Positions 21,264 to 49,646 of a stretch of 49,646 bases of DNA are shown piece by piece (position 1 is the stretch's first letter; each line of letters opens with the position of its first letter). The notes beneath the pieces are model-generated. The model saw only the letters and a program-made list of their open reading frames with translations. It was not told where the DNA came from and did not search any database. Origin of the DNA: Candidatus Mediterraneibacter faecipullorum (GTDB lineage: Bacteria; Bacillota; Clostridia; Lachnospirales; Lachnospiraceae); contig DWWO01000110.1 in assembly GCA_019119675.1 (NCBI GenBank), positions 1 through 49,646 of the forward strand, in the 5' to 3' direction. The translations under genes and the position numbers were made by a program.

Positions 21264-21280
21264 TTTTTTAAATAATGAAA

Positions 21281-21450
21281 GGCAAGATAGAGGTCGCATT
21301 TTTCATGAGTATGATGGCGGATGTATCAGGAACAGAGGAAATCATCAGAAAGGGGAAGATGCCGAAAGAATAAGGAGCCTGAAGCCTTATTCTTGGGCAT
21401 GCCGCTAAGAACGGTATGACTGTCATCGCAGGATGGAGAGCTATCTGATA
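21281..21450 (+). ncRNA. lysine riboswitch (L box)
   Basis: Conserved L-box blocks occur in order: AGATAGAGGTCGC, CATGAGTA, AAAGGGGAAGATGCCGAA, TTGGGCATGCCGCTAAGAACG, GGTATGACTGTCAT and GGAGAGCTATCTGA. The P1 helix is AGATAG (21285-21290) with CTATCT (21441-21446). The family binds lysine and shuts off lysine synthesis or import genes, here dapA. Confidence 0.95.
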
Positions 21451-21471
21451 TACGAAAATGTATATTTGGAG

Positions 21472-29436: not shown

Positions 29437-29507
29437 CAGGGGATGAGAGAATCGAACTCCCACCAAAGGTTTTGGAGACCCCTATCATACCATTTGACCA
29501 ATCCCCT
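29437..29507 (-). tRNA. tRNA-Trp (CCA anticodon)
   Basis: 71 bases. Acceptor AGGGGAT/ATCCCCT, D-arm GTCA/TGAT, anticodon loop CTCCAAA (anticodon CCA at 29475-29473), T-arm GGGAG-TTCGATT-CTCTC, discriminator G. The 3' CCA is not encoded. It has its own promoter and terminator. Confidence 0.95.
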
Positions 29508-48414: not shown

Positions 48415-48894
48415 ATGTTTCGCGAAATGCGCAGAAAAAAACAGAAATTATCAAAAGAAGAATGTGACCGCATCTTATACAATGGAACATCGGGAGTTCT
48501 GGCACTCCACGGAGATGACGGTTACCCCTATGCAGTGCCTGTAAGCTATGTCTACAATGGGGAAAAACTTCTGTTCCACAGTGCCAAAAACGGGCATAAG
48601 ATAGACGCCATATTAAAAAATGCAGCGGCTTCCTTCTGCGTCATCGATCAGGATCAGATCGTGCCGGAAGAATATACCACCTACTTCCGCAGCATCATTG
48701 CCTTCGGCAGAATCCGTATTCTGGAAGACGACACTGAAAAACGCTCCGCTATCGAAAAACTTGCAGTAAAATATGCGCCTGATGACACTGCCGAAAACCG
48801 GGATAAAGCCATCGAACGGGAGTGGAAACCGCTGTGTATGATGGAGATGGAGATAGAACATCTGACGGGGAAACAGGCGATAGAGATGATTTAA
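48415..48894 (+). CDS. pyridoxamine 5'-phosphate oxidase family flavoprotein (NimA-like)
   Basis: 159 residues with the split-barrel FMN-binding fold: FREMRRKKQKLSKEECDRIL, NGTSGVLALHGDDGYPYAVP, VSYVYNGEKLLFHSAKNGHK and the late IEHLTGKQAIE, all typical of NimA/nitroimidazole-reductase-like proteins of gut anaerobes. Members reduce nitro compounds or act on flavins of unknown use; resistance cannot be inferred. Starts behind GGAGG with its own promoter. Confidence 0.88.
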   Translation: MFREMRRKKQKLSKEECDRILYNGTSGVLALHGDDGYPYAVPVSYVYNGEKLLFHSAKNGHKIDAILKNAAASFCVIDQDQIVPEEYTTYFRSIIAFGRIRILEDDTEKRSAIEKLAVKYAPDDTAENRDKAIEREWKPLCMMEMEIEHLTGKQAIEMI

Positions 48895-48902
48895 GAAAAT
48901 TC

Positions 48903-49257
48903 CGGATTTATCTGACTGGCTGATAGTACAGAAAACGTCCGAAATACAGCAATATACAGCGACCTGACTTGCGTGTACGCAGGCGGAGAAAAAGGTTGAT
49001 CCCGGCTCCGGTTACAGGAAATAACTCAAAGTAACAAAGCAGGAAAATGGTTAAAAGCAAGTGAAAAAATGACGAACTCGCAAGCTCAGACAGCATCATT
49101 TTTTTACTTAACACCATTTCCCAGCTTTTAACTTTTCGTAATTTCCTTCCACAGTCGCCGTTCTCAATCTTTTTCTTCCTCTGCGTAAGATGCATCAGAG
49201 CAGCTGTAACCGTCCATTTTGACGTTTTACCGACTAACAGACCAGCCCGAAAATCCT
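48903..49257. repeat. 355-nt imperfect inverted repeat
   Basis: Left arm 48903-49072 is complementary to right arm 49096-49257 around a 23-base centre. In the ungapped core (48976-49022 against 49141-49187) I count 34 Watson-Crick pairs out of 47 plus 3 G-U pairs in the plus-strand RNA. Outer blocks still align with small gaps: GGATTT/AAATCC, AAAACGT/ACGTTTT, ACAGC/GCTGT, GGAAAATGG/CCATTTCCC. The innermost AAAAAATGA/TCATTTTTT looks like a terminator. A 118-codon minus-strand frame across it is probably a by-product. Confidence 0.8.
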
Positions 49258-49341
49258 CATACAAACAGGAGGAAGTCGGCGCTTTTTCGTAAATGGTTGA
49301 TAATTCTACAATTATTTCCTTAATCTTTTTATGTCAGATAG

Positions 49342-49359
49342 ATAACCGACTCCGGTTAT
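49342..49359. repeat. small hairpin
   Basis: ATAACCG-ACTC-CGGTTAT, perfect 7-bp stem. The motif CCGACTCCGGTTAT resembles CCGGCTCCGGTTAC in the left arm of the large inverted repeat (48992-49020 region). Confidence 0.6.
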
Positions 49360-49362
49360 GGA

Positions 49363-49498
49363 GATTTCTGGTTCCGCTTGTCTATTTTATATCTGCAGAA
49401 ATAATTCCATGTCAAGCCCTTGCCCGTAAACGGGTGCTTTGCAGGCTTGACATGGAATTATTCCTGCAGATAAGTATTAATCAAGCGGACCAGAAATC
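49363..49498. repeat. 136-nt long hairpin
   Basis: Outer stem 49363-49380 with 49482-49498 (17 pairs, one bulged T), an internal loop of about 9 bases per side, then a 29-bp stem 49390-49418 with 49444-49472 carrying a single A-C mismatch, and a 25-base apical loop with a CCCGT/ACGGG mini-stem. Too long and regular for a terminator; no U-run. Confidence 0.85.
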
Positions 49499-49524
49499 AA
49501 AGCGGCTCGAATTCGCCCCCACAG

Positions 49525-49570
49525 CTTAACTAATACTATATCAGCCAGGATTTATGAAATCTTAGTTAAG
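49525..49570. repeat. 9-bp inverted repeat after the long hairpin
   Basis: CTTAACTAA (49525-49533) with TTAGTTAAG (49562-49570), 28-base loop. It follows the 136-nt hairpin by about 26 bases. To the window end I see no gene. Confidence 0.6.
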
Positions 49571-49646
49571 AAAGATCCGGCTTTGTTCCTTCCGTCAGAA
49601 ATTCGATTTTCGGGATGGGAAAGAAAGCAGCCGGGAGGTATGTATT

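What the first reader, a model, noticed from the sequence alone, without database searches (positions are those of the whole stretch)
48903..49257. Giant imperfect foldback (about 170-nt arms) in a gene-free tract
Hand alignment shows the two arms stay in one register for long stretches (coordinate sums constant at 98163 from about 48956 to 49032), with scattered substitutions. Of the 13 core differences, 3 keep G-U pairs in plus-strand RNA. This is either an old foldback/MITE decaying or a structured RNA under selection. Nothing in the standard annotation explains it.
Basis: partly seen in the sequence, partly recalled or inferred. Interest (0 to 1): 0.72.

Follow-up and report, generated by a model that had tools for sequence, protein, structure and literature searches.

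The report
Mobile giant hairpins at gene ends
The foldback is one copy of a previously unnamed, repeated family of very large hairpin-forming sequences in gut bacteria that sits right after the stop codons of facing genes, keeps its RNA-like fold by matching changes in both arms, and has been copied to new genome sites by an unknown mechanism.

Summary
The foldback is real (48904-49256; RNA fold z about -9 on both strands) and not unique. It is a subtype (A') of a dispersed family of 350-430 nt hairpins in Mediterraneibacter (64 stretches in 11 assemblies in one pattern scan); no Rfam family matches. Its core covaries strongly (38 sequences: 95.7% of cells paired, shuffled 79.8%; 47 of 67 pairs with double changes). 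A model of the core finds relatives in 26 of 299 Lachnospiraceae genomes (one per genus, own included; lower bound); in the ten other genera examined the leading hits carry the same apical loop. In Mediterraneibacter the hairpins form composites (here A'-B-C, cut by the contig end) with inverted ends. In 55 of 68 type-A copies an ORF's stop codon lies 0-10 nt from the element. In 16 of 16 filtered paired composites both halves carry more G-U than A-C on the strand read outward, antisense to the abutting gene: evidence for selection on a folded single strand, most likely RNA. The same composite, 98.8% identical over 749 bp, sits beside different genes in M. catenae, so it is mobile. Mobiliser and function are unproven; I favour a non-autonomous element acting as a two-way RNA barrier between convergent genes.

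The parts
48415..48894 (+). Abutting host gene, pyridoxamine 5'-phosphate oxidase-like (Pyridox_ox_2), stop TAA at 48892-48894
   Evidence: Pfam PF12900, E 5.2e-26; DNA matches in 23 of 57 other genus genomes
48895..49646 (.). Composite element A'-B-C, truncated by the contig end
   Evidence: 98.8% identical over 749 nt to an M. catenae copy (G020:C1) between other genes; the orthologous site in G049 holds a complete 591-nt A'-C composite between this gene and a convergent gene
48896..48918 (.). Left terminal inverted repeat (AAAATTCCGGATTTATCTGACTG)
   Evidence: 23 of 23 nt identical, inverted, to the far end of the M. catenae composite
48904..49256 (-). Giant hairpin A' (the reported foldback); favoured RNA strand is minus, antisense to the abutting gene
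   Evidence: self-alignment, folds, G-U/A-C counts
48989..49174 (-). Conserved core of the family, with the apical loop
   Evidence: covariance model R1 match, 176 bits; covariation in alignment A4
49003..49015 (-). 3' side of a conserved internal-loop module (GTAACCGGAGCCG on the minus strand)
   Evidence: invariant in 7 of 7 copies chosen by BLAST; invariant in A3 only by construction, because A3 was chosen with it
49150..49160 (-). 5' side of the module (CGGYGACTGTG on the minus strand); predicted tandem G-A/A-G mismatch with the other side
   Evidence: same as above
49364..49499 (.). Hairpin B (second foldback of the composite), no strand preference
   Evidence: self-alignment 76%; in the M. 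catenae composite and, joined to C, in G002 and G004; G-U/A-C counts
49598..49646 (.). Start of hairpin C, cut by the contig end (start good to 1-2 nt)
   Evidence: maps to L087 2097-2291 in M. catenae; 84-nt match to L015

Best explanation
It is a copy of a non-autonomous, modular mobile element built on a Lachnospiraceae family of giant hairpins. A composite of two or three such hairpins, with similar inverted ends (AATTC[G/C]..), fills the gap between two gene 3' ends, most often convergent ones, each hairpin starting at its neighbour's stop codon. SHOWN here: dispersal, the same composite at non-orthologous sites, different and inverted module sets at one orthologous site, stop-codon abutment, covariation, a shared apical loop across genera, strand-specific G-U tolerance. 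INFERRED: the hairpins act as RNA when polymerase comes outward from the middle of the composite or through from the opposite gene; a giant hairpin then forms just before transcription would enter the neighbour antisense, so the pair works as a two-way barrier or 3'-end shield (termination, block to decay, or processing). That would make insertion at convergent ends harmless or useful and explain persistence. The mobilising enzyme is unknown.
For: Dispersal: 15 BLAST places in its own genome, self included; 18 matches at 16 places with another copy as query; 64 stretches in 11 assemblies. Mobility: 98.8% over 749 nt at a non-orthologous site; at the aspS-like 3' end some species are empty and others carry D'-A, inverted A..D', or D-C. 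Stop abutment: 55 of 68 type-A copies at 0-10 nt, with TAA, TGA and TAG. Convergence: 30 of 42 classifiable copies against 46 of 148 background 3' ends. Structure: 95.7% of cells paired, 47 of 67 pairs with double changes, 0 of 500 shuffles as high, slid controls 40-45%; own arms 0.957, swapped arms 0.793. Strand: 758 G-U against 224 A-C over 63 copies on the consensus of that strand, 304 against 174 on pairs called on both strands; 32 of 32 halves of 16 paired composites, orientation fixed by geometry. Orientation in other genera, G042 and G068: of 33 loci with a measured palindrome, a convergent ORF of 150 aa or more ends within 60 nt of the RNA's 3' side in 18; a same-strand ORF of that size ends within 60 nt upstream in 5.
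Against: No promoter-like or terminator-like site clearly above chance (L064 and the window only) and no T run after the hairpins, so ordinary intrinsic termination is not the mechanism. Hairpins B and C show no strand preference, and in the window copy it is slight. 12 of 42 classifiable copies face a codirectional gene; 17 of 68 had no abutting gene and 9 no visible distal gene under that crude calling; 9 of 68 had no ORF stop nearby. No expression data, no target-site duplication, no autonomous parent. Copies are related, so shuffle counts are not probabilities. The window region as a whole is about 97% identical to its M. catenae counterpart, so 98.8% does not by itself date the jump as recent.
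Confidence: 0.45

Rival explanations
1. Purely selfish foldback/MITE: the hairpins serve only transposition (recognised as folded single-stranded DNA by an unknown transposase) and have no host role; the stop-codon position reflects target choice plus purging.
For: Inverted ends, copy number, near-identical copies at different sites; G-T also pairs in DNA, so the strand signal could be an ssDNA one; Y1 transposases are tied to hairpin repeats elsewhere (passages of PMC2817692).
Against: In paired composites the favoured strands of the two halves are opposite, so no single transferred strand carries both good folds. No mobiliser matched: Y1 proteins were not detected in G060 and G063, which have strong type-A matches.
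Confidence: 0.28
2. Two divergent antisense non-coding RNAs start in the middle of the composite and run outward, each ending at the 3' end of the abutting gene.
For: The outward strand is the one whose folding is kept in 32 of 32 halves; antisense orientation to the abutting gene, also seen in other genera.
Against: No promoter-like sites in L064 and chance-level ones in the window; no terminator at the outer end; middle segments differ between types.
Confidence: 0.13
3. RNA-mobilised (SINE-like) element copied by a reverse transcriptase that binds the conserved loop.
For: Strand-specific covariation with a conserved apical loop plus dispersal.
Against: Reverse transcriptase (PF00078) not detected in G002, G046, G062, G060, G013, G019 (some are incomplete MAGs); composites with inverted ends and opposite-strand halves look like DNA units.
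Confidence: 0.05
4. Covariation produced by DNA-level arm-to-arm correction (template switching in a quasipalindrome), not by selection on folding.
For: Would also give own-arm pairing above cross-arm pairing.
Against: It predicts equal loss of mismatches on both strands; instead G-U exceeds A-C 1.7- to 3.4-fold depending on the pair set and 324 to 142 by strand-neutral self-alignment, with opposite orientation in the two halves.
Confidence: 0.06
5. Old foldback decaying neutrally, or chance sequence.
For: Arms only about 64-76% identical within copies.
Confidence: 0.03

Closest known systems
REP / BIME elements with RAYT (Y1) transposases
   Same: Palindromic extragenic repeats, some within 15 nt of an upstream stop codon (446 of 4,072 E. 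coli REPs; passages of PMC12306157), arranged in alternating orientation in mosaics, mobile.
   Different: REPs are 20-40 bp and GTAG- or CGTC-tagged (title and start of abstract of PMC3733652, listing); these hairpins are 350-430 nt in Mediterraneibacter, composites about 0.6-0.9 kb, no constant tag, no consistent RAYT link.
ERIC (127 bp) and YPAL (168 bp) of enterobacteria
   Same: Non-autonomous intergenic palindromes; co-transcription and effects on upstream mRNA reported or proposed, recent mobility of YPAL (sections 10 and 11 of PMC2229807).
   Different: Two- to three-fold smaller; no paired composite abutting two stop codons in those sections; sequence relation not tested.
Stem-loop repeat families of low-GC Firmicutes (e.g. 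Efa-1, 163 bp model; Sta-2, 460 bp model)
   Same: Stem-loop repeat families (passages of PMC2267715); stem-loops prefer convergent 3' ends in bacteria surveyed (passages of PMC1590033).
   Different: No Lachnospiraceae in the passages I saw; strand-specific covariation and one hairpin per facing gene end are not described there.
Bidirectional intrinsic terminators
   Same: Occupy the same place: at the aspS-like and aroA 3' ends some species without the element have a 40-45 nt hairpin or a short gap there.
   Different: No T run after the giant hairpin, several times longer, a dispersed repeat.

Membership tests
REP/BIME (RAYT-mobilised) | 20-40 bp palindrome with GTAG/CGTC head | tested here: not met
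   Hairpins 350-430 nt; starts are AATTCG/AATTCCGG; the GTAG-bearing 10-mer GGGACGTAGT occurs in 5 of 75 element loci
REP/BIME (RAYT-mobilised) | Association with a RAYT gene | tested here: not met
   Long Y1 form present in G000, G002, G004, G020 but no Y1 detected in G060, G063; in 13 of 20 fetched long-Y1 loci the gene lies by a different, ordinary REP palindrome
MITE / foldback transposon | Terminal inverted repeats, no gene inside, many dispersed copies | tested here: met
   the only ORF of 80 aa or more in the window hairpin is a 118-aa TTG ORF
MITE / foldback transposon | Target-site duplication | tested here: inconclusive
   None visible; empty sites come from diverged species and the spacer is replaced
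MITE / foldback transposon | Shared ends with an autonomous transposon | tested here: inconclusive
   None seen in fetched loci; not searched exhaustively
Known Rfam RNA families | Match above gathering score | tested here: not met
   Window: only lysine riboswitch and tRNA elsewhere; seven loci with copies: besides an S10 leader only hits below the gathering score, mostly microRNA models
Intrinsic terminator | GC hairpin followed by T run | tested here: not met
Structured RNA under selection | Compensatory changes beyond column make-up and slid controls | tested here: met
   not corrected for phylogeny
Structured RNA under selection | Is transcribed | not testable with these tools
   No RNA-seq available

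The most novel reading that the evidence does not exclude
A family-wide class of giant hairpin RNAs, capped by a conserved loop (UGUYUGAGCG-N-AGCGAGUU) that a dedicated protein may bind, marks the boundary between convergent genes; in Mediterraneibacter it has become the cargo of a mobile element that installs paired hairpins exactly between stop codons and insulates the genes from each other's antisense read-through, swapping hairpin modules while keeping the layout.
Probability: 0.28. Interest if true: 0.87.

Novelty: new variant of a known kind. Interest (0 to 1): 0.7.

Why it matters
Small palindromic repeats at gene ends are known in many bacteria, but why they sit next to stop codons and what they do remain open. 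Here the repeats are about ten times the size of REPs, carry a strong covariation signal with a strand, recur in several genera of a bacterial family, and occur in a cultured species (M. catenae SW178), so termination, antisense insulation, mRNA stability and mobility can be tested directly. They would be a new entry for RNA databases, and they help explain why contigs of these genomes break at gene ends.

Tried and rejected
1) Homology of covariance-model hits in other genera: I first took them for generic hairpins, because the type-A module was missing, and wrote so in my notes. On rechecking, the apical-loop pattern is present in 38 of 43 model hits and in the leading hit of each of the ten other genera fetched, and G119/G187 carry a variant module (UGACUUU/AAACCGGA, 6 loci). 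I therefore now read them as relatives. Census numbers remain lower bounds (8 candidates scored per genome, 45), and weaker hits were not all checked. 2) 'Module invariant in 63 of 63': circular, since A3 was chosen with a pattern holding the module. Without that choice, 7 of 7 BLAST-chosen copies have it; of 94 distinct nhmmer hits, both strands mixed, 49 have at most 1 mismatch on the 5' side and 48 on the 3' side. 3) RAYT as mobiliser: a shared 11-mer (GGGGACGTAGT) looked promising, but it belongs to a separate REP and Y1 is missing from some carriers. 4) Reverse transcriptase: not detected in several carriers. 5) Replication-strand mutation bias: excluded because the halves of a composite favour opposite strands. 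6) Vehicle: the composite has no match in plasmids or phages and the type-A pattern none in viral contigs; but the loop pattern alone occurs in 87 viral stretches, 4 of the 80 loaded loci match R1 weakly (E 7.7e-6 to 0.004), and 30 of 80 loops sit on stems of 15 pairs or more. Three blastn tests to place two of these hairpins found no match. 7) Promoter or terminator. 8) Literature: ten searches ran and I saw no description of this family (listings, plus the passages and sections cited); most subscription papers are not held. EFAR of Enterococcus and the 'skipping-rope' RNA are recalled leads, not found there. 9) Rows left out: 68 of 73 copies were uncut; 63 of 68 went into A3 (L117, L150, L164, L167, L174 copies left out without a stated reason), 38 of these into A4. 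The 16 paired composites are those passing a length and gap filter. One search's larger cluster mixes types and is not used.

Full report
Observation. The window is the whole contig G000:C152, 49,646 bases. The palindrome lies at 48904-49256 and folds far better than shuffles on both strands. The element starts 3 nt after the TAA (48892-48894) of a pyridoxamine-oxidase-like gene. Two more foldbacks follow: 49364-49499 and a third that the contig end cuts.

It is a family. BLAST with 48880-49280 finds 15 places in the same genome, itself included; several lie at contig ends, as expected if short-read assemblies break inside long hairpins. Full-length copies are themselves palindromes, mostly 350-415 nt by self-alignment. 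With another copy as query, 16 of 41 genomes gave matches, but several of these are only the flanking aroA gene; matches clearly covering the hairpin are in G000, G002, G004, G013, G019 and G020. None of the 16 genomes from other families of the order matched. An exact two-block pattern over the 84,980-species collection gave 64 stretches in 11 assemblies, titled Mediterraneibacter, Lachnoclostridium, Ruminococcus or Eubacteriales (the tool may leave out the window's own genome), and none in viral contigs. Blastn of the M. catenae composite found nothing in plasmids or phages.

Anatomy. Reading from the abutting gene, an element typically begins with AATTCG(T)G or AATTCCGG at the stop codon and runs through the giant hairpin. 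A short tail follows, and then usually a second hairpin of the same or another type facing the other gene. I call the types A, A' (the window's), B, C, D and D'. The window's composite is A'-B-C. A copy 98.8% identical over 749 nt lies in M. catenae between an ABC transporter gene and a sodium:alanine symporter gene; its far end shows that the composite has inverted ends (23 of 23 nt). At the window's own site, G049 has a complete 591-nt A'-C composite, ending 4 nt from the stop of a convergent 344-aa ORF, and a G020 contig starts inside the same element. The window region as a whole is about 97% identical to G020, and 11.5 kb elsewhere 93.3%, so the figure of 98.8% shows copying to another site more than its date. 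One chimaeric copy, L067, has D' outer arms and an A core (by eye).

Stop codons. In 55 of 68 type-A copies the stop of an ORF of at least 100 aa lies 101-113 nt before the core motif, that is about 0-10 nt before the element; four more have a stop at other distances and nine have none nearby. Among the 59, TAA, TGA and TAG occur 42, 11 and 6 times, so the element does not supply one fixed stop. ORFs were called crudely and some copies are orthologous, so the 68 are not independent. With a second crude gene calling, 30 of 42 classifiable copies face a convergent gene, against 46 of 148 3' ends in the background of the same loci.

Empty and filled sites. Downstream of an aspS-like gene, G019, G044 and G047 have a short gap with a terminator-like hairpin; G002, G004 and G013 carry D'-A; G062 carries A and D' in the opposite order with an internal deletion; G060 carries D-C; G000 and G020 break at an A'/C-type end. 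Thirty of 58 genomes gave loci for this; in several the script could not place the right gene or misread minus-strand loci. Downstream of aroA, G000, G002 and G004 carry type A, while G020 and G024 show type C. So sites are reused and modules exchanged; whether by repeated insertion or by recombination between elements is open.

Structure under selection. RNAalifold on 63 of 68 copies gives 78 pairs, 58 with kept double changes. On the 38-row core alignment 95.7% of cells pair, against 79.8% (sd 0.5) after shuffling and 40-45% with slid partners; the covariation score is 0.518 against 0.210. An arm pairs with its own partner at 0.957 and with other copies' partners at 0.793; in 25 of 38 rows the own partner is at least as good as any other. 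A module CGGYGACUGU / GUAACCGGAGCCGG, with a predicted tandem G-A/A-G mismatch, is constant in the 7 copies first chosen by BLAST; its constancy in A3 and A4 is partly by construction (see Tried and rejected).

Which strand. On the consensus of the outward strand (125 pairs, 63 copies) there are 758 G-U and 224 A-C, and 60 of 63 rows have more G-U; using only the 102 pairs called on both strands the counts are 304 and 174. In 16 paired composites, with orientation fixed by geometry and not by energy, 32 of 32 halves have more G-U on the strand read outward (324 against 142). Because the halves point opposite ways, replication-strand bias cannot explain it, and C-to-T bias on the mRNA strand would act the other way (inference). 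In the window copy alone the excess is small (9 against 6). Types B and C show none. The signal fits RNA best, but G-T pairing in single-stranded DNA is not excluded.

A wider family. The core model R1 matches 48 of 58 genus genomes (14 of 58 have a listed match of 150 bits or more) and 26 of 299 family genomes, one per genus, own included (only 8 candidates scored per genome). A model of a long hairpin could respond to any long hairpin, and most of these hits lack the type-A module. But 38 of 43 hits in the 34 fetched loci carry the loop pattern TG[TA][CTA][TC]GA..GAGTT, which I estimate at about 0.003 per sequence by chance (my arithmetic, not a call), and so does the leading hit of each of the ten other genera fetched. 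By eye the consensus is UGUYUGAGCG-N-AGCGAGUU, with shared flanking pieces such as GCGUUA and UUUUAGC in some. In the same hits 94.6% of cells pair against 54.1% after shuffling, though these were chosen and aligned by the structure. G068 has 149 matches of 150 candidates scored, G042 67. The four G042 loci show pairs of hairpins next to convergent stops, with similar starts (AAATCTGTATTTGTGGGGGAGCC). In 33 of 34 loci a palindrome was measured: a convergent ORF of 150 aa or more ends within 60 nt of the RNA's 3' side in 18, a same-strand ORF of that size ends within 60 nt upstream in 5, one locus counting in both.

Mechanism. I take the composite to be a non-autonomous mobile element whose hairpins are kept for their fold. 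The outward strand arises when polymerase comes through from the opposite gene or starts in the middle; a hairpin of up to about -200 kcal/mol then forms just before antisense transcription of the neighbour would begin. The likeliest effect is a two-way barrier or 3'-end shield. This step is inference: no promoter or terminator stood out and there are no expression data. The mobiliser was not found; Y1 and RT genes do not track the element.

Known relatives. REPs, ERIC and YPAL are alike in part (passages or named sections only). Membership in the REP/BIME family fails on size, tag and RAYT link. The MITE label fits by inverted ends, copy number and lack of genes, but target duplication and an autonomous parent are not shown. 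No Rfam family fits. Hence: a new variant of a known kind, and a candidate new RNA family.

Noticed in passing
G000:C106:2271-2600 (L283) and other long-Y1 loci (L284-L302): Mediterraneibacter has Y1 transposase genes of about 255-309 aa; 13 of 20 fetched loci carry the 11-mer GGGGACGTAGT, mostly as palindromes GGGGACGTAGT..ACTACGTCCCC beside the gene, and that 11-mer occurs 0-59 times per genus genome, both strands summed: a REP/RAYT-like system in a Firmicute.
   Followed up: partly
G068 (same genus): 149 model matches of 150 candidates scored in one 4.0 Mb genome; of 8 hairpins in four fetched loci, 3 abut an ORF stop within 10 nt.
   Followed up: partly
L333-L412 (viral contigs), e.g. L342 5488-5506, L345 1191-1209, L372: The same apical-loop letters cap hairpins in viral contigs (87 stretches; 30 of 80 loaded on stems of 15 pairs or more), some with GGCGTTAA/TTTAGCC flanks like the family core; hosts not identified.
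   Followed up: partly
L058 1950-2490 and L081 1800-2520: A VanZ-like reading frame (named by eye, not searched) lies between two half-elements beside aroA, its stop followed within a few nt by a tail segment without a hairpin.
   Followed up: no
window 21280-21451 +: Lysine riboswitch (Rfam RF00168, 109.7 bits).
   Followed up: no
window 29437-29507 -: tRNA gene (Rfam RF00005).
   Followed up: no
window 49646; contig ends of C26, C142, C74, C78, C102, C119 in G000: Several contigs of this genome end inside these hairpins, so gene-end neighbourhoods are under-assembled.
   Followed up: partly
L100 1419-1557, L108 1367-1488: At the aroA 3' end two other species carry 122-139 nt palindromes in the same place, next to a stop codon; relation to the family not tested.
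   Followed up: no
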